From assembly GCA_902766955.1 (NCBI GenBank), contig CACXFM010000208.1:1-49405 (forward strand): a stretch of 49,405 nucleotides of DNA, in the 5' to 3' direction. Of this stretch, positions 5,518 through 49,405 are shown piece by piece. The first letter of the stretch is position 1. Every line of letters begins with the position of its first letter. The position numbers and the translations under genes are program-made. The notes under the pieces were generated by a model. The model did no database searches, was not told the DNA's origin, and saw only the letters and a list, made by a program, of their open reading frames with translations. This DNA is from an uncultured Lachnospiraceae bacterium. GTDB taxonomy: Bacteria > Bacillota > Clostridia > Lachnospirales > Lachnospiraceae.

Positions 5518-5539
5518 GAAAAAGCGCCCGGGAAGGCGC
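5518..5539 (-). terminator. Terminator-like hairpin in the psuK leader
   Basis: Reading the minus strand, GCGCC (5539-5535), a six-base loop and GGCGC (5528-5524) are followed at once by TTTTT (5523-5519). It lies between the predicted psuK promoter and its ribosome binding site, so it could act as an attenuator. The stem is only five pairs, so function is uncertain. Confidence 0.35.
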
Positions 5540-5553
5540 GGTGTCTTCCCTAA

Positions 5554-5582
5554 ATCTTATGACGGATGGGTCCGCTTGTCAA
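5554..5582 (-). promoter_or_regulatory. Probable psuK-psuG promoter
   Basis: On the minus strand a perfect TTGACA (5582-5577) is followed by a 17-base spacer and TAAGAT (5559-5554, four of six matches to TATAAT). It points into psuK. The predicted start near 5547 leaves a leader of about 60 bases that holds the hairpin at 5518-5539. Confidence 0.6.
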
Positions 5583-5652
5583 ATCATGGGCTGGCGGAGG
5601 CCGTTTTTTCCGGCTTTTTCGGATGACTGAGCGGTTGTTTTTTTTCCGGTTC

Positions 5653-5658
5653 TATAAT
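5653..5658 (+). promoter_or_regulatory. Possible -10 box for the MATE transporter gene
   Basis: A perfect TATAAT at 5653-5658 lies about 55 bases before the preferred start codon of the transporter. No convincing -35 box is seen at 16-18 bases upstream (the nearest TTG is only 12 bases away), so this is a weak call. Confidence 0.35.
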
Positions 5659-5711
5659 ACCATTAATGGAATTGGCTTGTTATGTACTGGAACAAAAGAA
5701 GAGGTGTATTC

Positions 5712-8536: not shown

Positions 8537-8538
8537 AA

Positions 8539-28729: not shown

Positions 28730-28774
28730 ATTTATCTTACAGGAAATTGCTTTCTGTCTGCTTCGGTGATAGGT

Positions 28775-30136: not shown

Positions 30137-30146
30137 ACGGTAAGAA

Positions 30147-31346: not shown

Positions 31347-31358
31347 GGATTGATAACT

Positions 31359-32687: not shown

Positions 32688-32703
32688 CATAAAGAGGACA
32701 GGT

Positions 32704-34549: not shown

Positions 34550-35521
34550 ATGGAAGAAGCGAAGAGAAAACTGATATCGGTAGTCATACCGACTTATAAT
34601 GAAGAAGACAATGTGATTCCCATGACGGAAACTCTGACGGAGATTTTCGAAAAAGAGCTTGCCCGGTACGATTATGAGATTATCTATATCGATAATCACT
34701 CCAAGGACCGGACCAGAATCCTTCTGCGCAATATCTGCAGCCGGAATAAGCATGTGAAGGCGATCTTCAATGCCAGGAACTTCGGCCAGATGCGCTCCCC
34801 GGTCCACGGACTGAAGCAGGCTTACGGAGACTGCGTCATCCGCCTGACCGCCGACTTCCAGGATCCTCCCGCGATGATCCCGGTCTTAGTCAGAGAGTGG
34901 GAAGCGGGCAGCAAAATCGTGATCGGCATCAAGAACAAGACCGAGGAAGGCGCAGTGATGGCCTGGGTTCGCCGGCAGTACTATAAGCTTCTGCGGAAGA
35001 TCACGGACATCGGCCATATTGAAAACTTTACGGGCTTCGGCCTCTACGACAAAGCTTTCGTCGATGTGATCCGGAACGTGCACGACCCCATGCCTTACCT
35101 GCGCGGCATGATCGCCGAACTGGGATTTGATTACAAGACAATCCTGTACGACAGGCCCAACAGGCGGGCGGGAAAGAGCAAAAACAATTTTTATACGCTC
35201 TATGACTACGCCATGGTGGGAATCACTTCTTATTCGAAAGTGGTCTTAAGAATTGCGACCTTCATCGGCTTCTTTATCGGCCTCACCAGTATCATCGTGG
35301 CGCTGGTCTACCTGATCCTGAAGCTGATTCACTGGGACTGGTTCCATGCGGGCATCGCGCCGCTCGTGATCGGGCAGTTCTTCCTGGGCGGCGTCCAGCT
35401 GTTCTTTATCGGTCTGATGGGAGAATATATTCTCTCGATCAATACGAGAGTGCTGGGCAGGCCGTTGGTTGTGGAAGAAGAGCGCCTCAATTTTGACGAC
35501 GATACGCCCGTCGCCTCGTAG
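34550..35521 (+). CDS. GtrB/CsbB-type polyprenyl-phosphate glycosyltransferase (GT2)
   Basis: The 323-residue protein has a DPM1-like GT2 domain and two C-terminal membrane segments (about residues 233-262 and 268-300), the layout of GtrB, ArnC and CsbB. Seen: I-S-V-V-I-P-T-Y-N-E-E-D-N at residues 9-21, R-L-T-A-D-F-Q-D-P-P near residue 105 (the family's D-x-D-x-Q-D-P-P), and R-x-x-G-x-S-K before the membrane part. Such enzymes load a sugar from a nucleotide donor onto undecaprenyl phosphate inside the cell. The flippase and YfhO protein nearby could then move and transfer it. The start at 34550 lies two bases after the ThDP gene stop; an ATG at 34532 overlaps that gene. Its 3' end overlaps the convergent yfhO gene by 35 bases. 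Confidence 0.92.
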   Translation: MEEAKRKLISVVIPTYNEEDNVIPMTETLTEIFEKELARYDYEIIYIDNHSKDRTRILLRNICSRNKHVKAIFNARNFGQMRSPVHGLKQAYGDCVIRLTADFQDPPAMIPVLVREWEAGSKIVIGIKNKTEEGAVMAWVRRQYYKLLRKITDIGHIENFTGFGLYDKAFVDVIRNVHDPMPYLRGMIAELGFDYKTILYDRPNRRAGKSKNNFYTLYDYAMVGITSYSKVVLRIATFIGFFIGLTSIIVALVYLILKLIHWDWFHAGIAPLVIGQFFLGGVQLFFIGLMGEYILSINTRVLGRPLVVEEERLNFDDDTPVAS

Positions 35522-38225
35522 AAGCGCCGCGTCCGTCCGGGCGCAGCATGAGGAAAATCCACACGGCGGCGGACAGAATTGAAACGGCAAGGCCGGGCAG
35601 AGCGCCCGGTCTTTTCCATGTCATGGAAACGGAAACCGTGCCGGACGGCACGCGGATGCCGCAGAGACCCCCGTTGATGTTTTCGACCGCGGCCGCGCTC
35701 CCGTCCACGGAAGCGGACCAGCAACCTGACCAGAGGACGGGGACACAGAGCATGCCGCCTTCCGAGGAGACCGTGCCGCTCCATGTATCCCTCTCAAAGC
35801 GGATGTCCGATGCTCCGGAAGTCAGAAGCGGTTCTCCGATCTTTTCTTTCCCCGCATATACGTAGAGGGACACAGCCTCCAGATCCGTGCGGGACGCGCC
35901 TTTGGGCGGATCCAGGCGGACCTGGGCGGTGTCTTCCGGCAGAAGAATGCACCCTTCCGGACAGTCGCCGTTCAGATAGATAGAGAGTCTGCAGGCGGGA
36001 TCCGGTCCCTCACCTTCGCGGCAGGGGTAAACCGAAAAGAGACTCCGTCTGCTTTTAAGCCCCCGGCACCGGATGTAGAGGAAACGCGGAGATGAGCCGC
36101 CGCCTCTGCCGATATCGAAGAACAGATAGGGGTCGCCGCCCGTTTTGCTGAGACGGAGCACACCGTCTGTTTCCTCCGCTTTCAGGTCTGAGGGCGAGGA
36201 GGCCCTGTCCCGGAGGTCCGTCACGGTGAAATCCTCTTCCCCGACGGGAGGGGCGGCTGCATCTGCGGCAGAGCCGCTGTCCGCGGGATCCGTCAGGAAA
36301 TATGCGCGCGTCATGGCGAGGAGGCGCTCCGGAGCCGGCAGGGCGGAAGCGGCTCCGGAATCCATCTCATCGGTATAGACATATCCGAAGTCCGGGGCAT
36401 TCCGCAGACGCCAGACGGCTTTGCCGCCGTCGGCCGTCACGCTGATTTTTTCGAAAAGAGAAGAAGGGGGCTGATTGACGGACAGCCCGTCGTTATTCAG
36501 AATGCAGTACCTGCCGCCCATGAGGAGCATCGGAATGCAGCTGTTCCAGCCGATGTCCATGTGATTCTGCGAGGGACTTCCGACCGCCGCGCATCTGGCC
36601 AGACTCTCGAGGGAAGCGGGATTGGCGTTCAGGTAGACCGAGAGGGCGGGGCGGTCCAGCAGCATGCCGGCATTTGCACCGAACGTGTCGGCGGACGCCC
36701 AAATGCGGTACAGGGAATCATCCTGTTCCTTTGTACTTTCCGCCGCTTCTTCCGTGCCGTAGAGGGAAGCTGCGCCGGCGTAGGCCTCCTTCGTGAGATA
36801 GGACCGGAAGAAAAGCGTGTCATAATTCATCACGGTCAGCTCCGCGGCGATGAGAAGCAGTAATGCGGGCATAAGGATCTTCTTTCCGGCCCGGAGAAAG
36901 AGAGCCGAACAGATCAGGGCCGCGTAGAGAAGCGCAAACAGAAGGGCCTCTTTAAATGCCCGGGTATAGACCTGGATGCCGTATCTGGATCCGAAGGTTT
37001 TAAGCAGAAACGGAGCCGCCGCCGTCAGGGCGGGAGCGAGAACGGCGGAAATGAGGAGCGGGCGCCGTTCCGGCTCACCGGAGAGATCCTTCAGAAAGAA
37101 GGCCAGCCCGGCGACGCCTGCAAATGTGATCATGAAAGAAAACCGCTGGACATCCCCGTTGAACTGCAGCAGCTGTCCGGCTTTGCGGAAGGTGAGCATG
37201 AGAACGGAGACGGCAATGACTGCCGCCGACGCGGCCCGCGTGCGCTTTTTGGCGAGAAGGTAGAAAACCGCGAACAGAACGAGAATACTGGAGGAGAGGA
37301 CTGCCGCCTCATAGTAGTTGGCACCCCCCGTATAGGAGGAACCGACTCCGGCGGCGTTGACGGAGAACAGGCGCCCGAACGAAGTGAGCAGCGTTTTCGG
37401 GGACTGCATGGGTGCACTTTTTACCCGGGCCGTCAGGTCGGCGGACCGGACGGAGCCCACAAGACCGGTATAAATCTGGACGGCCGCAAAGCAGGACAGA
37501 AGCAGTGCCCCGCAGGCGCAGGCGGCGGTCAGCGCGGTATCTCTGAAAAATTCCCTACCGGGATTCCGCGCGGCAAGCTGCCGGACGAGAAGAAACATAA
37601 ATATAAAAGCGCCGGTCATCCAGGTGAAGTAATAGTTGGTGACGACGAAGAGGGCCAGGCCGCCCGCAAGCAGGAGAAAGGAGCGGACCGTCCGCAGCTT
37701 CAGCGCGCGGGCGAACAGGTACATGCAAAGCGCGAAGACCGCCATGCAGCTTCCGATCGTGAGATTCTGGCTCCAGAGCGTGACATATCCGGAGAAGGAG
37801 AAGCAGAGCGCGGCGGCGCAGGCGGGAGCCTGCTGTCCCGTCAGAATGTGAAAGAAGCCGTAAGAAAAGACGGCCGTGGCGGCAGTCTCCAGAAAACGCG
37901 CCAGCATGAGCCCCGCGGGAAGTGTGTCCTTCGTGAAAAAGAGCAGGGGGAGTTTAAGCGGATTCAGGTATTTGAGCATGAGCTGGGTGATGTCAGCGCC
38001 GAGGCCGGCCTGCAGATGGAAGGCCGAAAAATCCCGGGTCCGGAAGAGCTTCTGCAGAAAGACCAGGATGGGGAAGCTGGAGGAGACCGAGTCGGATCCG
38101 ATGTCCGTATAGAGGTACACGGCGTCCCCCGTCAGAAACCGTCCGTAGAGGACGATGAATATCAGAGCAACAGAAAAGAGAAGGAGCAGAGGCCATGAAG
38201 GCCTCCGCCTGAAAGAGTTTTTCAT
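35487..38225 (-). CDS. YfhO family membrane glycosyltransferase-like protein
   Basis: The 912-residue protein matches the YfhO family: about 12-14 membrane segments in the N-terminal 520 residues, a large outside domain rich in beta strands (about 530-880), and a last membrane segment near the C-terminus. Seen: the opening L-Y-T-D-I-G-S-D-S, F-S-F-S-G-Y-V-T-L-W-S-Q-N and the N-Y-Y-F-T-W segment. YfhO proteins have a GT-C-like fold. In Bacillus and Listeria they work with a CsbB-type enzyme and a flippase to add sugars to lipoteichoic acid outside the cell. The start at 38225 has GGCGGGAT upstream; the longer frame adds 13 residues without a ribosome site. It follows wecE by 62 bases in the same direction. 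Confidence 0.87.
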   Translation of the reverse strand: MKNSFRRRPSWPLLLLFSVALIFIVLYGRFLTGDAVYLYTDIGSDSVSSSFPILVFLQKLFRTRDFSAFHLQAGLGADITQLMLKYLNPLKLPLLFFTKDTLPAGLMLARFLETAATAVFSYGFFHILTGQQAPACAAALCFSFSGYVTLWSQNLTIGSCMAVFALCMYLFARALKLRTVRSFLLLAGGLALFVVTNYYFTWMTGAFIFMFLLVRQLAARNPGREFFRDTALTAACACGALLLSCFAAVQIYTGLVGSVRSADLTARVKSAPMQSPKTLLTSFGRLFSVNAAGVGSSYTGGANYYEAAVLSSSILVLFAVFYLLAKKRTRAASAAVIAVSVLMLTFRKAGQLLQFNGDVQRFSFMITFAGVAGLAFFLKDLSGEPERRPLLISAVLAPALTAAAPFLLKTFGSRYGIQVYTRAFKEALLFALLYAALICSALFLRAGKKILMPALLLLIAAELTVMNYDTLFFRSYLTKEAYAGAASLYGTEEAAESTKEQDDSLYRIWASADTFGANAGMLLDRPALSVYLNANPASLESLARCAAVGSPSQNHMDIGWNSCIPMLLMGGRYCILNNDGLSVNQPPSSLFEKISVTADGGKAVWRLRNAPDFGYVYTDEMDSGAASALPAPERLLAMTRAYFLTDPADSGSAADAAAPPVGEEDFTVTDLRDRASSPSDLKAEETDGVLRLSKTGGDPYLFFDIGRGGGSSPRFLYIRCRGLKSRRSLFSVYPCREGEGPDPACRLSIYLNGDCPEGCILLPEDTAQVRLDPPKGASRTDLEAVSLYVYAGKEKIGEPLLTSGASDIRFERDTWSGTVSSEGGMLCVPVLWSGCWSASVDGSAAAVENINGGLCGIRVPSGTVSVSMTWKRPGALPGLAVSILSAAVWIFLMLRPDGRGASTRRRAYRRQN
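35593..35615 (+). terminator. Terminator of the rightward glycan operon, inside antisense yfhO
   Basis: CCGGGC (35593-35598), a five-base loop and GCCCGG (35604-35609) are followed by TCTTTT (35610-35615). It lies 72 bases after the GtrB-type gene stop, inside the coding part of yfhO on the other strand. Confidence 0.55.
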
Positions 38226-38287
38226 ATGATCGATCCCGCCTTTATGGACTGATAGAAGGTGCAAAAGGAATCGGTGATAAGGAAGTA

Positions 38288-39415
38288 TCAGCGGTAAAAC
38301 GCAGTGACGGCATCGATGACCTTCCGGCGGTCTTCGACGGAGAGTCCGTAATAGAGCGGCAGACGGAGCAGCCGTTCACTCTCTTTCGTCGTATATCTGT
38401 CTTCGCCGTCAAAGCGGCCGTATTTCCTGCCGGCAGGAGCCGAATGAAGCGGAATATAATGGAATACAGCCATGATGTCCCGGGACTTCAGATAATCGAT
38501 CAGAGCCGTGCGCTCTGCGAGATCCGCGGCTTTGATGTAGTACATATGGGCGTTATGTTCACAGCCCTCCGGAATGCAGGGCTGTTCGATCCGGCCCTCT
38601 GCGGCCAGGGGGCGGAGCGCCTCGTCATAGGCCTTCCATGTCTGCATGCGGTCTTCGTAGATCCGGTCGTACTGCTCCAGCTGCGCCCAGAGGTAGGCCG
38701 CGTTGATGTCACTCGGGAGATAGGAGGAGCCGTAGTCCTGCCAGGTATACTTATCGATCTGGCCGCGGTAGAAGCGGCTTCTGTCGGTTCCCTTCTCGCG
38801 GTAGATCTCCGCCTGGTCGCGGTAAGCGAGGTCCGGCAGAAGGATGGCGCCGCCTTCTCCCATGGACAGATTTTTGGTCTCGTGGAAGGAGAGACAGTTG
38901 AAGTCTCCGATGGTGCCCAGCATTCTCCCTCTGTAGGAGGAGCCGAAAGCCTGTGCGGCGTCCTCCACGACTTTGAGACCGTGCCGCGCGGCGATGGCGC
39001 AGATCGTGTCCATTTCACACGCGACGCCGGCATAATGCACCGCCACGATGACCCTGGTTTTATCTGTAATGGCTTCCTCGATCCTCGTCTCGTCAATGTT
39101 CATGGTGTCGGGCCGTATGTCCGTAAAGACGAGGGAGGCTCCCCTCTGCACGAAGGCATCGGCGGTGGAGCAGAAGGTATAGGACGGCAGGATCACTTCG
39201 TCGCCGGGCTTCAGATCACACAAAAGCGCCGCCATCTCGAGGGCGGCCGTCCCGGATGTGGTCAGATAGGTGGCGGGTACGCGGAAGAAGCTGTTCATCC
39301 ATTCCTGGCAGCGTTTCGTAAAGGGGCCGTCGCCGCAGATTTTGCCGTTCCGGCAGGCTTCTGCCATGTATTCCGTTTCGGTGCCGACGAAGGGGCGTAT
39401 GTTGAAATTTACCAT
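38288..39415 (-). CDS. wecE: dTDP-4-amino-4,6-dideoxygalactose transaminase (WecE/RffA)
   Basis: WecE is a PLP-dependent DegT/DnrJ/EryC1/StrS aminotransferase that converts dTDP-4-keto-6-deoxyglucose to dTDP-4-amino-4,6-dideoxygalactose (dTDP-Fuc4N). The 375-residue length fits. Seen: T-S-G-T-A-A-L-E-M-A near residue 53 (phosphate binding), V-V-E-D-A-A-Q-A-F-G, and S-F-H-E-T-K-N near residue 182, where the lysine carries PLP; the F-H-E-T-K-N form is typical of WecE. Its substrate is made by RmlB, encoded divergently 197 bases away. The acetyltransferase WecD is absent from the window, so the amino sugar may stay free or be modified by other acyl donors. Ribosome binding site is weak. Confidence 0.93.
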   Translation of the reverse strand: MVNFNIRPFVGTETEYMAEACRNGKICGDGPFTKRCQEWMNSFFRVPATYLTTSGTAALEMAALLCDLKPGDEVILPSYTFCSTADAFVQRGASLVFTDIRPDTMNIDETRIEEAITDKTRVIVAVHYAGVACEMDTICAIAARHGLKVVEDAAQAFGSSYRGRMLGTIGDFNCLSFHETKNLSMGEGGAILLPDLAYRDQAEIYREKGTDRSRFYRGQIDKYTWQDYGSSYLPSDINAAYLWAQLEQYDRIYEDRMQTWKAYDEALRPLAAEGRIEQPCIPEGCEHNAHMYYIKAADLAERTALIDYLKSRDIMAVFHYIPLHSAPAGRKYGRFDGEDRYTTKESERLLRLPLYYGLSVEDRRKVIDAVTAFYR

Positions 39416-39538: not shown

Positions 39539-39612
39539 AGCACGGATTCACTTTTTTTGTGGAAAGACATTTTAGACAGCCCGGCAGGCTGATGCATCAG
39601 GAGGTTACACGG

Positions 39613-40695
39613 ATGAGAACATATCTCGTAACAGGCGGAGCCGGTTTTATCGGTTCAAACTATATTCATTATATATTCAAAAAATACGGCGATGAAATCC
39701 GCGTGATCAACGTCGACAAGCTGACCTATGCGGGGAATCTGGAGAATCTGAAGGATATCGAAGACAAAGAAGGGTATACATTCGTAAAGGCAGATATCTG
39801 TGATGCGGAGACGATTGACCGGATCTTCCGCGAGAATGATATCAACAGGGTCGTGCATTTTGCGGCCGAGAGCCATGTGGACCGCAGCATCAAGGATCCC
39901 GGAGTCTTTGTCAGGACAAACGTGCTGGGGACGCTGACCATGCTGAATGCAGCCAGAAATGCCTGGGAGCAGGAGGACGGCAGCTATCTGCCGGATCACA
40001 AATTCCTGCATGTCTCCACGGACGAGGTATACGGCTCGCTCTCCAATCCGGAAGACTACTTCTATGAGACCACCAAGTATGATCCGCACAGCCCGTATTC
40101 CGCATCAAAAGCATCTTCCGATTTCATGGTGAAGGCTTTCATGGATACATACGGTTTCCCGGCCAATATCACAAACTGCAGCAACAATTACGGGCCGTAC
40201 CAGTTCCCGGAGAAGCTGATCCCGCTTATGATCCACAACGCGCTGCACGGGAAGAGCCTCCCGGTATACGGAGACGGCATGAATATCAGGGACTGGCTCT
40301 ATGTGGAGGACCACTGCAAGGGCATCGACCTGGTTCAGGAGAAGGGCCGGCTTTACGAGACGTATAATATCGGCGGCCATAACGAGAGGGAGAATATCAC
40401 CATCGTCAAGACGATCATCAGTACCCTGAGGGACATGCTTCCGGAGGACGATGAGAGACGGGCCCACATCACGGAAGACCTGATCACCTACGTGACGGAC
40501 CGCAAAGGACATGACAGACGGTATGCCATCGCGCCCGATAAAATCAAGAAGGAAGTCGGCTGGTATCCGGAGACATGCTTCGAAGACGGAATCAGAAAGA
40601 CCATCGCGTGGTATTTCGATCACCAGGAATGGATGGAGCGTGTGACCTCCGGGGCTTATCAGGATTATTACGAGTCCATGTATTCAAACCGCTGA
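39613..40695 (+). CDS. rmlB: dTDP-glucose 4,6-dehydratase (RmlB)
   Basis: RmlB turns dTDP-glucose into dTDP-4-keto-6-deoxyglucose, the branch point for dTDP-rhamnose and dTDP-Fuc4N. The start at 39613 has AGGAGG eight bases upstream and gives 360 residues; the longer frame is not needed. Seen: [11 protein letters not shown] (NAD binding, residues 6-16), [19 protein letters not shown] with the catalytic Thr-Asp-Glu, Y-S-A-S-K (Tyr/Lys pair) and [11 protein letters not shown]. First gene of the operon, 46 bases before rmlA. Confidence 0.97.
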
Positions 40696-40741: not shown

Positions 40742-41626
40742 ATGAAAGGAATCATACTGGCCGGCGGAAGCGGCACGCGCCTGTACCCGCTGACAAAAGC
40801 AGTCAGCAAACAGATGATGCCGGTTTATGACAAGCCGATGATTTATTATCCGCTTTCCACGCTGATGCTGGCCGGAATCAGGGAGATCCTGATTATCTCG
40901 ACCAGAAGGGACCTGCCCATGTTCGAGGAACTGTTCGGCGACGGCAGCCAGCTCGGCATGCATTTCAGCTATGCGGTGCAGGAGCATCCCAACGGACTTG
41001 CAGAGGCATTTCTGATCGGCGAACAGTTTATCGGAAATGACCGGGTGGCGCTGGTCCTGGGCGACAATATTTTCTACGGGCAGAGCTTCTCCAGAGTCCT
41101 GCGGGAGGCCGCCTCAAGGGAGAAGGGCGCCACGATCTTCGGCTATTACGTGAGGGATCCGAGGGAATACGGCGTCGTCGAGTTTGACCGCGACGGAAAG
41201 GCTCTCTCGATTGAAGAGAAGCCCGAGCATCCAAAGTCCAATTATGCGGTTCCCGGCCTCTATTTCTATGACAACGACGTGATCGACATCGCCAAAAACG
41301 TCAGGCCTTCGGCCAGAGGCGAACTGGAAATCACTTCTGTCAACAACGCCTATCTGGAACGCGGGGATCTCTTCGTGGAGACTCTCGGCAGAGGGTTTGC
41401 ATGGCTTGATACCGGAAATCACGACATGCTGCTGGATGCGGCCGATTTCGTTTCCGCCTTCCAGAAGAGACAGGGCCTCTACATTTCCTGTATCGAAGAG
41501 ATCGCGTATAAGAGAGGATTTATTGACAGAGAACAGCTGGAGAAGCTGGCGCAGCCCCTGATGAAGACCGCTTACGGGCAGTATCTGATGGAGATTGCGA
41601 AAGGACTTGGATCAGGCGAAAGGTGA
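40742..41626 (+). CDS. rmlA: Glucose-1-phosphate thymidylyltransferase (RmlA)
   Basis: RmlA joins glucose 1-phosphate and dTTP to dTDP-glucose. The 294-residue length is that of the short RmlA form. Seen: [15 protein letters not shown] at residues 4-18 (nucleotide binding), [23 protein letters not shown] near residue 110 (metal-binding Asp), and I-E-E-K-P near residue 160. AAAGGAAC precedes the start. It comes second in the operon; rmlC follows after 12 bases. Confidence 0.97.
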
Positions 41627-41638
41627 AGGCGGATATTG

Positions 41639-42208
41639 ATGGGTAAAATCAAAGTCGAAGAGTGTGGAATTGAGGGACTGAAAGTAGTGACGCCGTCCGT
41701 GTTCGGCGACCCGCGCGGCTATTTTATGGAGACATACCAGTATCTGGATTTTAAAGAAGCGGGTATTGACCAGGTCTTCGTGCAGGACAACCAGTCTTCT
41801 TCCGTAAAAGGTGTTCTCCGGGGACTTCATTTCCAGATCCGGTATCCCCAGGACAAGCTTGTCCGCGTCGTGAGAGGAGAAGTGTTCGACGTGGCCGTGG
41901 ACCTGCGCGAAGGATCCGCCACATACGGCAAATGGTTCGGCGTCGTCCTGTCCGCGGAGAATAAGAAACAGTTCTTCATCCCCAAGAATTTCGCGCACGG
42001 CTTCTATGTGCTGTCGGATGAAGCGGAATTCTGCTATAAATGCTCGGATTATTATCATCCGAACGACGAGGGAGGAATCGCCTGGAATGATCCCGACCTG
42101 GCGATTGAATGGCCCCTCATTCCCGGAACGGACCCGATTCTCTCCGAGAAAGACCGTAAATGGGGCTCTTTTTCCGCGTACCGCTTAGCGGCGCATGATC
42201 AGACATGA
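41639..42208 (+). CDS. rmlC: dTDP-4-dehydrorhamnose 3,5-epimerase (RmlC)
   Basis: RmlC epimerises C3 and C5 of dTDP-4-keto-6-deoxyglucose on the way to dTDP-L-rhamnose. The 189-residue cupin has F-G-D-P-R-G-Y-F-M-E-T near residue 22, V-L-R-G-L-H-F-Q with the catalytic His near residue 61, and P-K-N-F-A-H-G-F-Y-V-L. Start: ATG at 41639 (GGCGGA about six bases upstream); a TTG just before it is less likely. The final reductase RmlD is not seen next to it. The stop overlaps the exporter permease start (ATGA). Confidence 0.95.
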   Translation: MGKIKVEECGIEGLKVVTPSVFGDPRGYFMETYQYLDFKEAGIDQVFVQDNQSSSVKGVLRGLHFQIRYPQDKLVRVVRGEVFDVAVDLREGSATYGKWFGVVLSAENKKQFFIPKNFAHGFYVLSDEAEFCYKCSDYYHPNDEGGIAWNDPDLAIEWPLIPGTDPILSEKDRKWGSFSAYRLAAHDQT

Positions 42209-43023
42209 AGAAACAATCAAGGAACTTTCTTTTGAGCCTCCCTTCCGACATCGTGCGGAACAGGCGGCTGATTCTAAAACTTGCGAAAAATGATTTCAGG
42301 ACCAGATATGCCGGGTCTTATCTCGGTATTATCTGGGCTTTTGTTCAGCCTGTCGTGACGGTGCTGGTTTACTGGCTCGTATTCGGCCTCGGCTTTAAGA
42401 GTGCGACGACGACGGATGTGCCTTTTGTCCTGTATCTCACCTGCGGCATCGTCCCCTGGTTCTACTGTCAGGAACTCCTGATTTCCGGGACGAACGTACT
42501 TCTTGAATACAGTTATCTGGTCAAGAAGGTCGTGTTTGAGATCGGCGTTCTGCCCATGGTCAAGGCGGTATCCGCTTTCTTCGTGCACGCTTTTTTTATT
42601 CTGGTGGCGATCGTGATCGGGATGCTCTACGGGATCATGCCGTCGGTCTATCTGCTGCAGCTGGTATACTATTTTGCCGCGCTGTTTCTGTTTGTGCTCG
42701 GGATTGTGTACGGCAGCTGCGCGGTCGTGATTTTCTTCCGGGATCTGAGCCAGATCATCAGCATTATTCTGCAGGTGGGCATCTGGTCCGTTCCGATCAT
42801 GTTTAATCTGCAGACCTTCGAGACGCGTTCCTTCGCCTTTATCTTCAGGATCAATCCGATGTATTATATCGTGACCGGCTACAGGGACGCGATCTACGGA
42901 CATGTCTGGTTCTGGGAGAGAGGCTGGTATACGCTGTATTTCTGGGGCTGGACGGTCTTCCTTCTTCTGTTCGGGACTGCTGTTTTCCGGAAGCTGCGGG
43001 TTCATTTCGCCGATGTGCTGTGA
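42205..43023 (+). CDS. ABC-2 type polysaccharide export permease (Wzm/TagG)
   Basis: The 272-residue membrane protein has six membrane segments and the ABC2 opening R-R-L-I-L-K-L-A-K-N-D-F-R-T-R-Y-A-G-S-Y-L-G-I-I-W near residues 20-44, with the R-x-R-Y-x-x-S-x-L-G motif of Wzm/TagG/KpsM-type permeases. It forms the channel through which undecaprenyl-linked polysaccharide or teichoic acid crosses the membrane. It overlaps rmlC by four bases and precedes its ATPase by 14 bases. Whether it carries rhamnan-like glycan or teichoic acid cannot be read from the permease alone; the dTDP-sugar genes favour the former. Confidence 0.94.
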   Translation: MKKQSRNFLLSLPSDIVRNRRLILKLAKNDFRTRYAGSYLGIIWAFVQPVVTVLVYWLVFGLGFKSATTTDVPFVLYLTCGIVPWFYCQELLISGTNVLLEYSYLVKKVVFEIGVLPMVKAVSAFFVHAFFILVAIVIGMLYGIMPSVYLLQLVYYFAALFLFVLGIVYGSCAVVIFFRDLSQIISIILQVGIWSVPIMFNLQTFETRSFAFIFRINPMYYIVTGYRDAIYGHVWFWERGWYTLYFWGWTVFLLLFGTAVFRKLRVHFADVL

Positions 43024-43037: not shown

Positions 43038-44315
43038 ATGTCAGAGAATGCAATTGAGATCAGTCACCTCACCAAGACCTATAAATTATATAAGAAGCCT
43101 TCGGACAGGCTGAAAGAGGCACTGGGGCTGTCCCGGAAGAAGCGGTATACGGAGCTGAACGCACTGGATGACGTCAGTTTCTCCGTCAGAAAAGGAGAGA
43201 CGGTCGGGATCATCGGCACCAACGGATCGGGCAAATCCACCATACTGAAGATCATTACCGGCGTTCTGAGCGAGACTTCGGGGGAGGTGAAGGTCGACGG
43301 CCGTATTTCCGCCCTTCTAGAGCTGGGAGCCGGGTTCAATATGGAGTACACCGGGATCGAGAATGTATATCTCAACGGCACGATGATCGGCTTCACCAGG
43401 GAGGAGATCGACGCAAAGCTTGCGGATATTCTTGATTTTGCGGATATAGGGGATTTTGTCAACCAGCCCTGCAAGACCTATTCGAGCGGTATGTTCGTGC
43501 GCCTGGCCTTTGCGGTGGCGATCAATATTGATCCGGAGATTCTGATCGTGGATGAAGCGCTGTCGGTCGGCGACGTGTTCTTCCAGGCCAAGTGCTACCA
43601 TAAATTTGACGAGTTCAAGCGGCAGGGCAAAACCATCCTGTTCGTGAGCCACGATCTGGGATCCGTCTCCAAATACTGCGACCGCGTCGTCCTTCTGAAC
43701 AAGGGCGTCAAAATGGCGGAGGGAAGCCCGAAGGAGATGGTGGACCTCTACAAGCGCCTGCTCGTCCATCTGGAGAGCGGGGAAGAGGAAGTGAAGGAGG
43801 AGGAGACCGCCGACAGCGGCGTGAAGCAGCCTCTGACCGGTCCGCTGCCCATGAATCCCCATACCCTGGAGTACGGGGAGGGGCAGGCCGAGATCATCCA
43901 GGTCGTGACGATGGATGATTCGGGACAGATCACGAACGCGCTGGAAAAGTTCCGGCCGTTTGCAATCCGGATGAGGGTGCGCTTCCTGGCCGACGTGGAG
44001 AGTCCCATCTATGCGTTTACGGTCAAGAACCTGCAGGGGACGGAGCTGACAGGCACCAACACCATGTTTGAGAAAATTGACACGGAGAACCGCAGGGCGG
44101 GGGACGTGACGGAAGTGACCTTCCGGCAGAACCTGAATCTGCAGGGCGGAGAATATCTCCTGTCCTTCGGATGTACCGGGTACCAGGCCGGGGATTTTCA
44201 CGTATTTCACAGACTGTATGACGTGCTGAACTTCACATGCATCTCGACCAAAAATACGGTCGGCTTTTATGATATGGACTCCGAGATCGGAGTGCGGACA
44301 ATCAGCCCCAGGTGA
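43038..44315 (+). CDS. Polysaccharide export ABC ATPase with C-terminal glycan-binding domain (Wzt type)
   Basis: The 425-residue protein has an ATPase part and a carbohydrate-binding tail. Seen: I-G-T-N-G-S-G-K-S-T (Walker A, residues 59-68), the L-L-E-L-G-A-G-F loop, Y-S-S-G-M (signature, 148-152), and I-L-I-V-D-E-A-L-S-V-G-D (Walker B, 168-179). After an acidic linker (about 245-265) residues 275-425 form a beta-sandwich resembling the Wzt C-terminal domain (for example N-x-x-G and the final Y-D-M-D-S-E-I). In E. coli O9a and similar systems that domain reads the modified chain end before export. TagH and simple capsule ATPases lack it, so the exported chain here probably carries a cap. 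Confidence 0.93.
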   Translation: MSENAIEISHLTKTYKLYKKPSDRLKEALGLSRKKRYTELNALDDVSFSVRKGETVGIIGTNGSGKSTILKIITGVLSETSGEVKVDGRISALLELGAGFNMEYTGIENVYLNGTMIGFTREEIDAKLADILDFADIGDFVNQPCKTYSSGMFVRLAFAVAINIDPEILIVDEALSVGDVFFQAKCYHKFDEFKRQGKTILFVSHDLGSVSKYCDRVVLLNKGVKMAEGSPKEMVDLYKRLLVHLESGEEEVKEEETADSGVKQPLTGPLPMNPHTLEYGEGQAEIIQVVTMDDSGQITNALEKFRPFAIRMRVRFLADVESPIYAFTVKNLQGTELTGTNTMFEKIDTENRRAGDVTEVTFRQNLNLQGGEYLLSFGCTGYQAGDFHVFHRLYDVLNFTCISTKNTVGFYDMDSEIGVRTISPR

Positions 44316-44342
44316 GTGACGGGGCGGGGAGGTGTTCGGAAT

Positions 44343-45260
44343 ATGACGGAGACGATAGGCGGCGTTCTGCTGATTGATGATGATTATCCGGGCACGGATC
44401 TGTACAGCGACGGTGCCGTGGAGGATGAACTGCTGGAAATCGCGAAAAATGAAGAGCCGGAGAATTTTGACCGGGTGGCCGCGCAAAGAAAGAGCTGGCC
44501 CGTTCTCTATCATTTTTCGGGGATCAGACAGAATATCCTGAATTGGTATCCGATCGGCGGATCGGACAGGGTGCTTGAGATCGGCTCCGGCTGCGGCGCC
44601 GTCACGCCGGCCCTGGCGGAGCGGGCGGGCCATGTGGACTGCGTGGAGCTGTCCAGAAAGCGGAGCCTGGTCAACGCCTGGAGAAACAGGCGGTGTGACA
44701 ATATCGCGATCCGGCTGGGCAATTTTGAGGACGTGGAGAAAAAGCTGCCCCGGGACTACACGCGTGTGACCATGATCGGCGTCTTCGAGTACGGCGTGAG
44801 CTATATTTCCTCGCAGACTCCCTACGTGGATTTCCTTAGGAAGGCAGCCTCCCATCTGTGCCAGGGAGGCAGGCTTCTGATCGCCATCGAAAACCGGCTG
44901 GGCATGAAATACTTTGCCGGCTGTGCGGAAGACCACACGGGCCGTTTTTTTGACGGCATCGAGGGGTACCCGAAGTCGGATTACGCCCGCACGTTTTCCC
45001 GGAAGGAGCTGGAGGAGCTTCTTAAGGAGGCCGGCTTTACGAACTGGAACTTCTATTACCCCTACCCGGATTACAAGTTCCCGATGACGGTCTTTTCGGA
45101 CAGGAGACTGCCCGGGCCCGGCGAGCTCCGGATGAACATGATGAATTTTGACAGGAAGCGGATGGTGCTGTTTGACGAGGCGGCTGCTTTCGACGCGCTG
45201 GCCGGAAGCGGAGAGTTTCCCGTGTTCTCGAATTCCTTTTTGATTGAGGCGTATGTCTGA
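44343..45260 (+). CDS. Class I SAM-dependent methyltransferase, probable chain-terminating type
   Basis: The 305-residue protein is a Rossmann-fold methyltransferase. Seen: V-L-E-I-G-S-G-C-G-A-V-T near residue 77 (SAM motif I), V-E-L-S-R-K-R acidic strand end near residue 98, and I-A-I-E-N-R-L-G-M-K-Y-F-A-G near residue 180. The C-terminal part (F-D-R-K-R-M-V-L-F-D-E-A, then F-S-N-S-F-L-I-E) resembles methyltransferases that sit before a kinase domain in glycan loci. The stop overlaps the start of the kinase-glycosyltransferase gene by one base (TGATG), so production is coupled. By position beside a Wzt-type ATPase, it may methylate the growing end of the glycan, like the WbdD methyltransferase; that is inference. 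GGGGAGGTG precedes the ATG at 44343. Confidence 0.85.
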   Translation: MTETIGGVLLIDDDYPGTDLYSDGAVEDELLEIAKNEEPENFDRVAAQRKSWPVLYHFSGIRQNILNWYPIGGSDRVLEIGSGCGAVTPALAERAGHVDCVELSRKRSLVNAWRNRRCDNIAIRLGNFEDVEKKLPRDYTRVTMIGVFEYGVSYISSQTPYVDFLRKAASHLCQGGRLLIAIENRLGMKYFAGCAEDHTGRFFDGIEGYPKSDYARTFSRKELEELLKEAGFTNWNFYYPYPDYKFPMTVFSDRRLPGPGELRMNMMNFDRKRMVLFDEAAAFDALAGSGEFPVFSNSFLIEAYV

Positions 45261-48200
45261 TGAACGAACAGATTATCTATGTCAAGTTTTCCAATGACAG
45301 AAAGCGCGATTTCAGGATCCGGACGGAGATCGCGGAATGCGGAGGGCAGAAGACAGTGCGGAAGATTGCCGCCTGCAAAGAGGCGGTGCCGCATGTCAGA
45401 CGCATGTATGCGGAATACAGGCTGCTCACGGAAGTGTACGGGGAAACCCGGTTTGTGCCCAACCGCTGCGAACTGAAAGGGGACACGGCGGAATTTGAGT
45501 ATCTGGACGGCCGCACGATGGAAGAGATCCTGGACCGTCTGTATGACACGGACAGGGATGCCTTCCGGAGCCTCCTGAAAAGCTGTCTGGACGAGATCGG
45601 CAAAACCGCGGCGGGCAAACTGTTTTCGCTGACGGAAGAGTATCTGGCCGTCTTCGGACAGGAGATCCCCGAAGACGTCTGTGAAGCGGCGCCCGCTTCC
45701 GACGTGGACCTCCTCTTCTCCAATATCATTGTCACGGACGGCGGGCAGGGAGAAGAAACCTGGCATGTGATTGACTATGAGTGGACGCTTCCCTTCCCGG
45801 TCCCGGTGCTGTTTATCAAATGGAGGGCCCTTCATTACTATCTGGCCGGCAGGGAAGAGAGAAATGCCGCCGATACGGCGGAGCTCTATGAGATGGCGGG
45901 ATTCTCCCCTAAGGATATCAGGCGCTTTGCGGCCATGGAGGAGCATTTCCAGAAATGGATCGCCGGCGATACGGAGGCGGTCCGCGAGCTGTATCCCGCC
46001 ATGACGCCCGGCGCGGTCTATCCGGCCGAGCTCATGGGGAAGGCGGAGTTTACCGGCGCCGCAGACCGGACCGTGATCTATTTTGACCGGGGAGACGGTT
46101 ATTCGGAAGCGGACGCTCTGCGGATACCGATTGGAGAGGACGGCCGGGTCGAGGCTGAATTTGCTCCGGAAGGGGCTGTCTCCGTGCGGATTGATCCGGC
46201 GGAAATGCCGGCGGCCTGTGTCGTGAGGGAGATCACCGCGGACGGAAAGCCGTTTGACAGGGCCGTTTTCGGGACAAACGGCAGGTGGGCGGACCAGCGG
46301 ACTCTGGTATTCGGAGACAATGACCCCATGATCATCGTTCCCGGACTGTCCCCGGACATATCCCGCATGAAGGTCTCGCTGGAGGTGAAGACCGGACGCG
46401 ATGATTATACGGCCGCAGTGAACAAGGCGCTGAAGGCGGATGCCGAAGAGCTGCAGTTTCTGAAGGAGAGGCTGGCCTGTGAAGAGGAGACCTGCAGGGA
46501 GATTCTGCGCAGGGTCGAATCCGTCAAGGGGACAAAAGCGATCCGGGCCTACCGCTATGGCAGGAAGCGGCTCGGCAAAACGGATCCCTTTGATTCGATC
46601 CGTCCGAAGCTGCAAAACCACCAGGGCATTCATCTGCATCTGGACCACAGATATTTCGACGGCCCGGGGATCGTCATCCAGGGCTGGATCTATGATGCGG
46701 ATTACTGCGGAGAGAGCCTGCGTGTCGTCAACTGTCTGGGACTGGATGCGGAAGCTGAGATCGAGCGGGTTGTCCGCGACGATGTCAATGCGACCTTCCA
46801 TATCGATACGGCCAGGAAATCCGGCTTTAATATCAGGATTCCCTACGAATCCATCGGGAATCTGCCGTATGTGCTCCGGATCGAGAACCCGAGAGGCGTT
46901 CTCTCTTATGACCTTCATATCGAGCTGGATCCGGAGAAGAGACGGGAGCGCAGGGAGCTGATCCGGCAAGGTGCGATCGCTGCGCCCGACGAGCCTCCCA
47001 TGGAATACGATGACTGGATGCGGGAGCGCGCGGTATCTGAAGAAGAGCGGGAGCGGCAGAGACAGGAGCATTTCCCGTATGAGCCGAAGATCAGCGTGGT
47101 GATCCCTCTTTTCAACACGCCGGCTGTCTATCTGACGGAGATCTGCGATTCTATTCTGAACCAGACGTATGCCAACGTGGAACTGTGTCTGGCCGACGGC
47201 AGTACGGAGGACGGACCGGAGAAACTGATCTCATCCAGGTATGCCGGGGACGGACGCGTCAGATACAGAAGACTTGCGGAGAACAGGGGTATCTCCGAGA
47301 ATACGAATGAGGCCATCCGCATGGCGGAGGGCGATATCATCATGCTGGCCGACCATGACGACACGGTCGACCCGTCCGCATGCTATGAGATCGTGAAGGC
47401 CTTTAATTCGGACATCGATGTCGATATTGTCTATACGGATGAGGACAAGATCACCCAGACGGGGAATATCTATTACGATCCGAATTTCAAACCCGACTAT
47501 AACCTCGATCTGCTCAGGAGCAATAACTATATCTGCCACATCTTCGCGGTCCGCCGCATGGTGGTGCAGATGGCGGGACTTCTGCGGAGCGAGTTTGACG
47601 GCGCGCAGGACTACGATTTTATCCTGCGCTGCTGCGAGAAGGCGCGCGGAATCAGACATGTTCCGAAGGCGCTCTACCACTGGCGCGCACATATGGATTC
47701 GACGGCCGGCAACCCGGAGAGCAAGCTGTACGCCTATGAAAACGGCAGGCGCGCCGTGGCCGCCCACTATGAGCGGCTCGGGATCAGTGCCCAGGTTGAG
47801 ATGACGCAGTACTGGGGCCGCTACCGCACGATTTTCGCGGTACAGGGCAGGCCGCTTGTCTCCATCATCATTCCGAACCGCGACCATGCGGCGGATCTCC
47901 GGCGCTGCCTGGATTCCGTTTTCGCGAAATCCACTTATCAGAACTATGAGATTCTGATCCTGGAGAACGGTTCGCAGGAGCCGGAGACAAAGGCATATTA
48001 CGGCGAACTGACGGCGGCGCACGCAAACGTGCGGATTCTCGAGTGGAAGGAAGACTTCAACTACTCGGCTATCAATAATTTCGGAGCGAAGGAAGCAGCG
48101 GGAGAATATCTGCTCTTCCTCAATAATGACACGGAAGTCCTGACGCCGTCCTGGATCGAGGAACTGCTGGGACACGCGCAGCGTCCCGACGTCGGGTGCG

Positions 48201-48718
48201 TGGGAGCCAAGCTCCTCTTCCCGGACGGGACGATTCAGCATGCCGGCGTGGTTCTCGGGATGGGAGGCGCGGCGGGCCACATGTTCGCCGGCCTGTCTGC
48301 AAAGGTGTTCTCCTACGGCGGCCGGGCGAATTCCACCCAGGACTTAAGCGCGGTCACGGCCGCGTGCATGATGACGCGCAGGAGCGTTTTCCTTGAGGCG
48401 GGCGGATTTGATCCGGAGTTCAGGGTGGCCTTCAATGATGTGGACTACTGCCTGAAGCTGCGCGAAAAGAACCTGCTGGTCGTGGAAAATGTCTTTGCCG
48501 AGCTGGTTCACTATGAATCGGCGACCAGGGGCAGCGACATGGCCGCTTCCGACAGCGAAAAACACAGGCGCTTCCTCTCCGAGGCCAACCGCCTGCGGGC
48601 AAAATGGCCCGCTTATTATGAGGGGGGAGATCCTTACTTTAATCCGAATCTGGAGCCGAACCGTTCGGACTTTGCCCTGAAGGGACAGTATCCGACGGGG
48701 AATCCGGAAGAACTGTGA
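45260..48718 (+). CDS. Kinase-like domain / helical segment / double GT2 glycosyltransferase fusion
   Basis: The 1152-residue protein has several parts. Residues 1-250 look like a divergent small-molecule or sugar kinase: V-R-K (Lys35), A-E-Y-R (Glu52), a hinge-like F-E-Y-L-D-G-R-T-M-E-E-I (79-90), D-L-L-F-S-N (Asp150, Asn155) and I-D-Y-E-W (Asp172). Residues 260-375 are a beta-rich module. Residues 384-425 are a charged helix, possibly a coiled coil. Residues 455-555 form a second beta module with I-V-I-Q-G-W-I-Y. Residues 610-855 are a GT2 domain (I-S-V-V-I-P-L-F-N; A-D-H-D-D at 697-701). Residues 866-1135 are a second GT2 domain (V-S-I-I-I-P-N; L-N-N-D-T-E near 954; F-N-D-V-D-Y near 1058). 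It overlaps the methyltransferase gene by one base. It probably phosphorylates and elongates the exported glycan on the inner membrane face. Confidence 0.82.
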   Translation: MNEQIIYVKFSNDRKRDFRIRTEIAECGGQKTVRKIAACKEAVPHVRRMYAEYRLLTEVYGETRFVPNRCELKGDTAEFEYLDGRTMEEILDRLYDTDRDAFRSLLKSCLDEIGKTAAGKLFSLTEEYLAVFGQEIPEDVCEAAPASDVDLLFSNIIVTDGGQGEETWHVIDYEWTLPFPVPVLFIKWRALHYYLAGREERNAADTAELYEMAGFSPKDIRRFAAMEEHFQKWIAGDTEAVRELYPAMTPGAVYPAELMGKAEFTGAADRTVIYFDRGDGYSEADALRIPIGEDGRVEAEFAPEGAVSVRIDPAEMPAACVVREITADGKPFDRAVFGTNGRWADQRTLVFGDNDPMIIVPGLSPDISRMKVSLEVKTGRDDYTAAVNKALKADAEELQFLKERLACEEETCREILRRVESVKGTKAIRAYRYGRKRLGKTDPFDSIRPKLQNHQGIHLHLDHRYFDGPGIVIQGWIYDADYCGESLRVVNCLGLDAEAEIERVVRDDVNATFHIDTARKSGFNIRIPYESIGNLPYVLRIENPRGVLSYDLHIELDPEKRRERRELIRQGAIAAPDEPPMEYDDWMRERAVSEEERERQRQEHFPYEPKISVVIPLFNTPAVYLTEICDSILNQTYANVELCLADGSTEDGPEKLISSRYAGDGRVRYRRLAENRGISENTNEAIRMAEGDIIMLADHDDTVDPSACYEIVKAFNSDIDVDIVYTDEDKITQTGNIYYDPNFKPDYNLDLLRSNNYICHIFAVRRMVVQMAGLLRSEFDGAQDYDFILRCCEKARGIRHVPKALYHWRAHMDSTAGNPESKLYAYENGRRAVAAHYERLGISAQVEMTQYWGRYRTIFAVQGRPLVSIIIPNRDHAADLRRCLDSVFAKSTYQNYEILILENGSQEPETKAYYGELTAAHANVRILEWKEDFNYSAINNFGAKEAAGEYLLFLNNDTEVLTPSWIEELLGHAQRPDVGCVGAKLLFPDGTIQHAGVVLGMGGAAGHMFAGLSAKVFSYGGRANSTQDLSAVTAACMMTRRSVFLEAGGFDPEFRVAFNDVDYCLKLREKNLLVVENVFAELVHYESATRGSDMAASDSEKHRRFLSEANRLRAKWPAYYEGGDPYFNPNLEPNRSDFALKGQYPTGNPEEL

Positions 48719-48745: not shown

Positions 48746-49405
48746 ATGGTAGTAAACCGGGGATTTCTGGTGAAGAATGACCGCTTTTCCCTGACCGACG
48801 ACAACATGTATTTTCTGACAGGCTGGCTGGCCCCCGGATACAGGCTGCGCGCCGAATTCGGAGGACGGCCGCTGCCGGCCGAGGTTCAGCAGCTGACCGA
48901 CAACGTCGACGAGCGGTACGGCGGCTGTGAGACAAAGCTTGTGTTTCACTTTGAGGAAGCGCTCGAGGGCCGGAAGAAGCTGAAGGTGTTTTCAGAAGGG
49001 GACGGGGGGACTCGGCTCTGCTTTGCCATCCCGGCTGATGAACTGCGCGCAAAAAGGCGGGGTGTCAGGTACTTCATCGATGAGTATACCGTCAACCGCA
49101 AAGACGGATTCTTCCGGGTCCAGGGATGGGCGGTGGCCAGGGAGAAGGTGCGGGTCGATGTGTTCGGTCCGGACGGCAAAAAGCTGGCAGAGACGGTCGA
49201 GCGCTATAAGCGCTATGATACGGTGGAGCTGTTCGACGAGTACCCCGTGGATCCGGACAACGGATTCAATGTGGAGCTGAGACCGGTCCCGGAAGGACCC
49301 GTGCGGGTGCGCCTGCGCACGTCCTCCGATACGGTCGTGCTCACATATCCGACGGATTCCGTCCGCGTGTCGGCGGACAGGGCGCGGCACCTGTTCAGGA
49401 AAGGA
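48746..49405 (+). CDS. N-terminal part of a large glycan-operon protein (cut by window end)
   Basis: An open frame of 220 codons runs from the ATG at 48746, with AAGGAG nine bases upstream, to the end of the window without a stop. It is all beta-rich. Two segments share a pattern: Y-F-L-T-G-W-L-A-P-G near residue 22 and F-R-V-Q-G-W-A-V-A near residue 125, which also recalls I-V-I-Q-G-W-I-Y in the second beta module of the preceding kinase-glycosyltransferase. Such modules often precede GT2 domains in large glycosyltransferases of Clostridia, so the missing part may be another glycosyltransferase. That is a guess from context. It is the last visible gene of the rmlB operon, 27 bases after the previous stop. 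Confidence 0.8.
   Translation, partial: MVVNRGFLVKNDRFSLTDDNMYFLTGWLAPGYRLRAEFGGRPLPAEVQQLTDNVDERYGGCETKLVFHFEEALEGRKKLKVFSEGDGGTRLCFAIPADELRAKRRGVRYFIDEYTVNRKDGFFRVQGWAVAREKVRVDVFGPDGKKLAETVERYKRYDTVELFDEYPVDPDNGFNVELRPVPEGPVRVRLRTSSDTVVLTYPTDSVRVSADRARHLFRKG

What the first reader, a model, noticed from the sequence alone, without database searches (positions are those of the whole stretch)
43038..48718. Possible Gram-positive WbdD/Wzt-type chain termination and export system
Three adjacent, tightly coupled genes encode a Wzt-type ATPase with a C-terminal glycan-binding domain, a methyltransferase, and a protein with an N-terminal kinase-like domain. Established knowledge: in E. coli O8/O9a-type systems WbdD methylates or phosphorylates the non-reducing end of the O-antigen, which stops growth, and the Wzt C-terminal domain reads that cap for export. 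The same three functions in the same order beside a Wzm-type permease, in an organism without an outer membrane, suggest a capped, length-controlled wall glycan exported by the same logic.
Basis: partly seen in the sequence, partly recalled or inferred. Interest (0 to 1): 0.82.

Follow-up and report, generated by a model that had tools for sequence, protein, structure and literature searches.

The report
Gram-positive sugar-chain capping and export
A Gram-positive gut bacterium carries neighbouring genes that probably stop a growing surface sugar chain by putting a phosphate cap on its end, and an exporter whose sensor domain probably checks for that cap, a control logic best known from Gram-negative O-antigens.

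Summary
Wzm, Wzt with a Wzt_C domain (PF14524, 1.2e-38), a methyltransferase (MT) and a 1152-aa protein lie in one tight run; the last two overlap in TGATG. Residues 1-250 of the large protein model confidently (pLDDT 94.5) as an APH-type kinase; Lys, catalytic Asp, Asn and metal Asp are kept in the window and all 80 related loci. The same protein carries two GT2 domains, which the finding does not mention. The closest characterised system is not WbdD but Klebsiella pneumoniae O7 ORF6 (2024): MT, APH-like kinase, Ig-like domain, coiled coil, two GT2 modules, capping rhamnose with methyl phosphate. Here the MT is a separate gene. In all 80 loci kept (of 345 found) MT and kinase are fused (58) or adjacent (22); 79 have Wzt_C. 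The Wzt pocket points to a phosphate cap: where methyl-reading A. aeolicus Wzt has Trp, this family has Arg (79 of 80 frames), as does E. coli O9. Of 20 further Wzt loci, the 3 with a kinase have Arg; the 17 without have an aromatic residue there. I infer a phosphate-capped, export-licensed rhamnan. Gram-positive precedents exist (WsaE; C. difficile SLCT-11), so this is a new variant of a known kind.

The parts
39559..40695 (+). rmlB-like, dTDP-glucose 4,6-dehydratase (sugar donor supply)
   Evidence: Matches the annotated rffG of C. braakii (411 bits); an rml gene is seen in 70 of 80 related loci (rmlB in 51)
40742..41626 (+). rmlA-like, glucose-1-phosphate thymidylyltransferase
   Evidence: Matches annotated rfbA of C. 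braakii (419 bits); in 60 of 80 related loci
41636..42208 (+). rmlC-like, dTDP-4-dehydrorhamnose 3,5-epimerase
   Evidence: Matches annotated rfbC of C. braakii (218 bits); in 68 of 80 related loci
42205..43023 (+). Wzm, ABC permease
   Evidence: No Pfam match at E 1; NF050109 galactan Wzm 9e-14, below its cut-off; Wzm in 74 of 80 related loci
43038..44315 (+). Wzt, ABC ATPase with C-terminal cap-reading domain
   Evidence: PF00005 1.9e-23 and PF14524 1.2e-38; 37% identity to E. coli O9 Wzt over the whole length
43866..44276 (+). Wzt_C carbohydrate-binding domain; N341 and R392-x-Y394-D395 (R392 codon 44211-44213)
   Evidence: coordinates; best solved matches 2r5o (3.3e-12; its printed letters equal the E. 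coli O9 Wzt tail) and A. aeolicus Wzt (2.9e-09); signature
44343..45260 (+). SAM methyltransferase (open frame from GTG 44316)
   Evidence: PF13489 2e-07; the six SAM-contact residues of K. pneumoniae O7 ORF6 have counterparts Y30, Y65, G90, G92, E111, Y159 in ORF numbering from 44316
45260..48718 (+). ORF3, 1152 aa: kinase - segment strand-rich in a relative - short possible coiled coil - GT2 - GT2
45260..46009 (+). kinase domain, residues 1-250; K35, D150, N155, D172 invariant
46034..46432 (+). residues 259-391, segment matching the strand-rich domain of the modelled relative
   Evidence: 63.9 bits to a profile of that part of A4; in the L076 model a run of strands at 572-677
46445..46528 (+). 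residues 396-423, best heptad segment, possible short coiled coil (weak)
   Evidence: crude heptad score 0.60; whole-protein 95% null 0.68, local null 0.50
47093..47566 (+). GT2 domain 1 (residues 612-769)
   Evidence: PF00535
47861..48508 (+). GT2 domain 2 (residues 868-1083)
   Evidence: PF10111 best stretch; the pair is 40% identical over 537 aa to the GT pair of P. asturiensis
48746..49405 (+). next gene, cut by the contig end; its relatives in several loci continue into GT2-GT2
   Evidence: no Pfam match for the piece

Best explanation
The genes make, end-cap and export a rhamnose-type surface glycan. The two GT2 domains of ORF3 extend a lipid-linked chain from dTDP-rhamnose. The kinase domain of the same protein phosphorylates the non-reducing terminal sugar; the adjacent MT then methylates that phosphate (the methyl acceptor is the less certain step). 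The cap stops elongation and is read by the Wzt C-terminal domain, where R392 sits in the position of the Trp that lids the methyl pocket in A. aeolicus Wzt, so that only finished chains leave through Wzm/Wzt. Shown here by computation: domain content, APH-type kinase fold with an intact catalytic set, MT-kinase fusion or adjacency, the Wzt_C domain, and co-variation of the Arg signature with the kinase. Inferred: substrates, the phosphate cap, its methylation, chain-length control, and attachment to wall or S-layer.
For: Kinase fold and residues. MT and kinase in 80 of 80 kept loci: 58 fused, 22 adjacent on the same strand with open frames -118 to +31 bases apart. Wzt_C in 79 of 80. Among 200 genomes of the window's family, Wzt_C in 97 of 99 with a match to the MT-kinase profile and in 16 of 101 without (from 74 and 75). 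Closest experimental relative: K. pneumoniae O7 ORF6, whose MT and kinase put methyl phosphate on O-3 of terminal rhamnose in vitro; D441A abolishes it (PMC11231755). A P. asturiensis protein has all six ORF6 SAM residues at the same numbers and an Asp at 443 (O7: 441); the window MT is 35% identical to it over 294 aa, the GT pair 40% over 537 aa, and the kinase profile scores it 34.2 bits (best single stretch 30.0, catalytic loop onward) against 4.4 for the best of 1000 shuffles. Wzt pocket: Arg with kinases (O9, O99, P. asturiensis, C. braakii, L178, L179, L183, 79 of 80 frames), Trp in O8, O60 and A. aeolicus; further test: Arg in 3 of 3 loci with a kinase, aromatic (10 Tyr, 6 Phe, 1 Trp) in 17 of 17 without.
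Against: No chemistry of a glycan from any of these loci was found. The kinase profile does not reach WbdD. Pairwise BLAST of ORF3 with P. asturiensis finds only the GT pair; the kinase link needs the profile. C. braakii scores only 5.2 bits, with Glu where the metal Asp should be, judged by spacing. The coiled coil of ORF3 is short and weak, so the molecular-ruler part is unproven. The helix-C position tested (57) is not a conserved Glu; H45 is near-invariant instead. L117 has MT-kinase but no Wzt_C in 20.9 kb; 2 genomes with a profile match have no Wzt_C; kinase-like ORFs without an MT match in the stretch read exist (L069, L072); MT-kinase ORFs beside GT2 genes occur without Wzm/Wzt in the stretch read (L052, L185). 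The Arg/Trp reference set with known caps is small, the loci are related, and the loop before the Arg column has gaps in 16 of the 17 controls, so that column is approximate there.
Confidence: 0.72

Rival explanations
1. The kinase makes the cap alone (phosphate, or a cyclic phosphate as in C. difficile SLCT-11), and the MT methylates a sugar hydroxyl elsewhere in the chain.
For: C. difficile SLCT-11 ends in 2,3-cyclophospho-rhamnose with rml genes and an ABC transporter (PMC6254364); kinase ORFs without an MT match in the stretch read exist.
Against: MT is fused to or directly beside the kinase in 80 of 80 kept loci, and the O7 homologue methylates the phosphate.
Confidence: 0.13
2. A methyl-only cap as in E. 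coli O8 or WsaE; the kinase-like domain is a catalytically dead scaffold.
For: WsaE shows MT plus two GT domains with a methyl cap in a Gram-positive (PMC2943079).
Against: Lys, Asp, Asn and Asp are kept in the window and all 80 kept loci; the Wzt pocket has Arg, not the Trp seen in O8 and A. aeolicus.
Confidence: 0.06
3. MT and kinase decorate internal sugars or the lipid-linked primer; Wzt_C reads some other feature and there is no length control by capping.
For: The ORF3 coiled coil is weak, and similar MT-kinase ORFs lie beside GT2 genes without Wzm/Wzt in view.
Against: Co-occurrence with Wzt_C 97 of 99 against 16 of 101, and the Arg signature tracks the kinase.
Confidence: 0.09

Closest known systems
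Klebsiella pneumoniae O7 ORF6 (JBC 2024, PMC11231755)
   Same: MT, APH-like kinase domain not recognised by family libraries, a further domain after the kinase (strand-rich in the modelled relative; Ig-like in O7), dual GT2 module, beside wzm/wzt and rml genes; SAM-contact residues have counterparts
   Different: Here the MT is a separate, overlapping gene; the coiled coil is short and weak; the host is Gram-positive. The sequence of ORF6 itself was not compared: the link runs through the paper's residue numbers and P. asturiensis
WbdD with Wzt/Wzm of E. coli O9/O9a
   Same: MT plus kinase beside wzm-wzt in the same gene order; Wzt 37% identical, with the same R-x-Y-D and Asn in the cap domain
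   Different: Kinase profile does not match WbdD; WbdD has no GT domain; polymannose instead of a predicted rhamnan; outer-membrane host
WsaE with Wzm/Wzt of Geobacillus stearothermophilus (S-layer glycan)
   Same: Gram-positive; MT and two rhamnosyltransferase domains beside wzm/wzt; cap proposed to be read by Wzt
   Different: No kinase reported; 2-O-methyl cap. The sequence was not compared here
C. difficile SLCT-11 (Ox247) S-layer glycan cluster
   Same: Gram-positive, rml genes, two-gene ABC transporter, phosphate-type cap on terminal rhamnose found by NMR and MS
   Different: Cyclic phosphate; no capping enzyme named in the passages I saw; gene content not compared here (sequence not held)

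Membership tests
K. pneumoniae O7 ORF6-type terminator-polymerase | MT domain with the six SAM-contact residues | tested here: met
   O7 Y28, Y66, G91, G93, E112, Y158; window Y30, Y65, G90, G92, E111, Y159. In A2 the E111 position is E in 23 and D in 11 of 34
K. pneumoniae O7 ORF6-type terminator-polymerase | APH-like kinase domain with catalytic Asp | tested here: met
   homology to the P. asturiensis kinase 34.2 bits (best stretch 30.0) against a best of 4.4 in 1000 shuffles
K. pneumoniae O7 ORF6-type terminator-polymerase | Ig-like domain after the kinase | tested here: inconclusive
   Strand-rich domain 572-677 in the L076 model, its fold not searched; window residues 259-391 match that segment at 63.9 bits, P. 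asturiensis only 5.8 against shuffle best 5.0
K. pneumoniae O7 ORF6-type terminator-polymerase | Coiled coil between terminator and polymerase | tested here: inconclusive
   Long helix 680-713 in the L076 model; weak heptads in ORF3
K. pneumoniae O7 ORF6-type terminator-polymerase | Two C-terminal GT2 modules | tested here: met
   40% identity over 537 aa to P. asturiensis
K. pneumoniae O7 ORF6-type terminator-polymerase | All modules in one chain (O7 layout; the paper calls module distribution flexible) | tested here: not met
   MT is separate here; full fusion occurs in same-genus relatives L033 and L034. Hence filed as a variant
K. pneumoniae O7 ORF6-type terminator-polymerase | Methyl phosphate on terminal rhamnose | not testable with these tools
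   needs chemistry
WbdD family | WbdD-type kinase | tested here: inconclusive
   Sequence profiles do not match; WbdD is not in the 50 rows, which proves nothing
Cap-reading Wzt | C-terminal carbohydrate-binding domain on the ATPase | tested here: met
Cap-reading Wzt | Cap-pocket residues | tested here: met
   Asn313 of A. aeolicus = N341; the Trp362 position is Arg as in O9
Cap-reading Wzt | Binding of capped glycan | not testable with these tools
   needs binding assay
WsaE type | MT and GTs without kinase, methyl cap | tested here: not met
   A kinase domain is present

The most novel reading that the evidence does not exclude
About half of sampled genomes of this family (99 of 200 match the MT-kinase profile, some by one domain only) may build phosphate-capped, length-controlled rhamnan-type wall glycans licensed for export by Wzt, through a Gram-positive branch of the O7-type terminator; and one Wzt position (Arg against an aromatic residue) may predict the cap chemistry of ABC-exported glycans from sequence alone.
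Probability: 0.45. Interest if true: 0.75.

Novelty: new variant of a known kind. Interest (0 to 1): 0.62.

Why it matters
Chain ends of wall glycans in gut Firmicutes are rarely examined (my judgement, not a search result). If half of a large gut family caps its glycans with phosphate, their size, charge, immune recognition and phage receptors may depend on an enzyme pair that sequence annotation misses: in 76 kinase members the kinase-type Pfam matches were isolated and weak (APH 0.002 and ABC1 0.0027 in one member each, Pkinase 0.016 in two; first 25 of 52 families shown). The Wzt signature would turn cap type into something that can be read from genomes, and cultured carriers in the list make it testable.

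Tried and rejected
Direct WbdD homology of the kinase: hhalign probability 0.2 and HMM -1.0 bits, so WbdD descent is not claimed; only the MT core aligned (84 columns, probability 51). WbdD (4azs, named in PMC3482155) is not in the 50 rows; this proves nothing. A PDB search with the kinase profile gave no convincing hit (best 0.019 to a protein not called a kinase, then JAK1 at 0.24). P. asturiensis match to the strand-rich segment: 5.8 bits against shuffle best 5.0, rejected as evidence. Coiled coil as molecular ruler in ORF3: not supported well enough. Phage-borne copies: 23 pattern matches in viral contigs, none confirmed. Foldseek search of the L076 model: machine busy, not obtained; the VIA list covered only the MT domain, and its many class I methyltransferases do not tell the acceptor. 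The sequences of C. difficile SLCT-11, R. gnavus, WsaE and O7 ORF6 were not obtained, so they were not compared. A first script for the Wzt column had an indexing error; its counts were discarded and redone.

Rows left out before counts: A1 used 36 of 39 kinase matches (L048 second copy, L066, L072 left out); A2 33 of 37 MT matches (L048, L052, L066, L070 left out); A3 75 of 80 kinase rows (L096, L131, L145, L146, L151 left out for odd length; all five keep the four residues); A4 55 of 58 fused loci (L081, L119, L131 left out, over 800 aa); A5 29 of 34 Wzt_C matches. In one search the O8 row has a gap at the Arg column; its Trp is from the MAFFT alignments.

Papers: seen by passages: PMC6254364, PMC2943079, PMC3482155, PMC9445017, PMC12413058, PMC11127046; passages plus part 1 of 2 of sections 11 and 13: PMC11231755; other search hits by listing and start of abstract only. 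PMC6791312 (E. coli O9a Wzt module) is not held, so whether it already describes the arginine is unknown to me. Searches for Gram-positive WbdD-like or MT-kinase systems: (and 30 on glucorhamnan); by their listings none showed one beyond those cited.
Full report
WHAT IS THERE. The window is one whole contig (G000:C208) of a genome 86% complete. Two same-genus genomes have contigs of the same length as public records: G030:C141 and SVDL01000052.1 (Lachnospiraceae bacterium SIG279), G016:C32 and OMYS01000004.1 (uncultured Clostridiales RUG094); from this I infer Lachnospiraceae, a Gram-positive family. From 39559 the + strand carries rmlB, rmlA, rmlC, Wzm, Wzt, a methyltransferase and ORF3; the contig ends inside the next gene. 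Wzt_C is clear (PF14524 1.2e-38), and the full Wzt is 37% identical to E. coli HS O9 Wzt. MT and ORF3 overlap by TGATG. ORF3 has GT2 twice and an N-terminal 250 residues without a convincing Pfam family: in 76 members no family matches more than 5 even at E 1; among these weak hits are Pkinase (2), OspG kinase (2), APH (1, E 0.002), ABC1 (1, E 0.0027) and RIO1 (1); 25 of 52 families were shown.

THE PARTNERSHIP. All 80 hold the kinase: 58 fused with MT, 22 directly beside it. 55 of the 58 are MT-kinase proteins of 655-769 aa without GT domains; WbdD has 708. 79 of 80 have Wzt_C, 74 Wzm, 70 an rml gene. A tree of 115 MTs needs at least 11 changes between fused and split, 4 of them forced by well supported branches. 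In 200 genomes of the window's family, its own included, 99 match the MT-kinase profile at 1e-30, some by one domain only; 113 have Wzt_C; overlap 97 of 99 against 16 of 101, Fisher 5e-37 without correction for kinship. On inspection 3 of those 16 have the kinase (L196, L203, L207), with a clear MT match in two and a fragmentary one (8 and 16 bits) in L207. In 398 Bacillota genomes, the window's own included, 15 match at 1e-15, among them a 1557-aa frame with MT, kinase (13 bits only), GT2 and GT2 beside wzm-wzt (L178).

THE FUSED RELATIVE. The 727-aa Blautia protein (L076) models as MT, kinase, a strand-rich domain (572-677) and a long helix (680-713), pLDDT 90.9, pTM 0.78; only its MT was matched to known folds. 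The layout resembles the N-terminal half of K. pneumoniae O7 ORF6: MT, unannotated 223-aa kinase domain nearest to AmiN, Ig-like domain, coiled coil, followed by two GT2 modules (PMC11231755). There, phosphate and then methyl on O-3 of terminal rhamnose were shown in vitro, and D441A abolished the activity. The sequence of ORF6 was not obtained. A P. asturiensis plasmid protein of 1457 aa next to the ABC transporter genes has the same six SAM residues at the same numbers, and Asp 443, so it stands in for the O7 type. The window MT is 35% identical to it, the GT pair 40%. Pairwise BLAST does not find the kinase, but the window-family kinase profile does: 34.2 bits, best stretch 30.0 over profile positions 147-233, best of 1000 shuffles 4.4. 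A C. braakii plasmid shows rmlBACD-permease-ATPase-MT-GT, but its kinase match is weak (5.2 bits).

THE READER DOMAIN. The closest solved relative of the Wzt C-terminal domain is 2r5o (3.3e-12), whose printed letters equal the E. coli O9 Wzt tail, then A. aeolicus Wzt (2.9e-09). In A. aeolicus, Trp362 lids the 3-O-methyl pocket and Asn313 holds the ring oxygen (PMC9445017). By the printed alignment these are R392 and N341 here (numbered by hand, offset one). R-x-Y-D is present in O9, O99 (terminator 44% identical to WbdD), P. asturiensis, C. braakii, L178, L179 and L183; the Arg is in 79 of 80 Wzt_C frames (one frame is a fragment of L082), the Asp in 72 (Glu 4, Asn 2, Gln 1). O8 and O60 have Trp. 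As a test I took 20 further Wzt_C loci: all 16 family genomes with Wzt_C but no profile match, and 4 of the 8 second Wzt genes. The 3 with a kinase have R-x-Y-D. The 17 without a kinase match have an aromatic residue in that column: Tyr 10, Phe 6, Trp 1; the loop before it is shorter in 16 of them, so the column is approximate. L202 and L213 of these 17 show weak MT matches.

READING. I conclude that ORF2 and ORF3 together are most likely a split O7-type terminator-polymerase and that Wzt is its reader. Phosphate at the chain end is supported by the kinase and by the pocket; methyl on that phosphate rests on the O7 homologue. Length control by a coiled coil is not shown. The sugar is inferred from the rml genes. 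How the chain is fixed to wall or S-layer is unknown; I recognised no ligase among the 25 proteins scanned in Pfam, which do not cover every ORF of the window.

KNOWN AND NEW. Capping in Gram-positives is known from WsaE and, as a phosphate, from C. difficile SLCT-11, where the authors proposed an O9a-like role. The O7 paper names orthologues in alpha- and gammaproteobacteria and cyanobacteria, and a homologue in the archaeon Methanoculleus (supplements not seen). Not found in print by my searches (listings only apart from the papers named): the Lachnospiraceae branch, its split and fused forms, and the Arg/aromatic switch. Only open-licence papers were searched.

Noticed in passing
L052 (G000:C49) 4378-6345: A second, divergent fused MT-kinase ORF (656 aa; MT 91 bits, kinase 20 and 16) in the same genome, beside a GT2 gene, with no Wzm/Wzt match in the 14-kb contig. 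Similar 755-761 aa MT ORFs lie beside GT2 genes in L185 and L186 (kinase match in L185 only).
   Followed up: partly
L047:4876-6009 and L048:4880-6013: Stand-alone kinase-like ORFs (378 aa) upstream of Wzm, in addition to the kinase of the large protein.
   Followed up: no
L069:463-3711 and L072:4593-5891: Kinase-like domains without an MT match in the stretch read; possible phosphate-only caps.
   Followed up: no
28766-32687: Three consecutive ORFs (456, 399, 445 aa) without a Pfam match at 1e-4, ahead of a thiamine-pyrophosphate enzyme at 32665-34548.
   Followed up: no
35487-39415, - strand: A YfhO-type membrane protein and a DegT-type aminotransferase lie on the opposite strand just before the rml genes.
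   Followed up: no
8533-11001: One ORF joins an FHA domain to an ABC ATPase and an ABC-2 membrane domain.
   Followed up: no
L213 (G000:C182), frame from 862: A second Wzt_C-bearing ATPase of the same genome, with Trp instead of Arg in the cap column and no kinase match in its 3.7-kb contig.
   Followed up: partly
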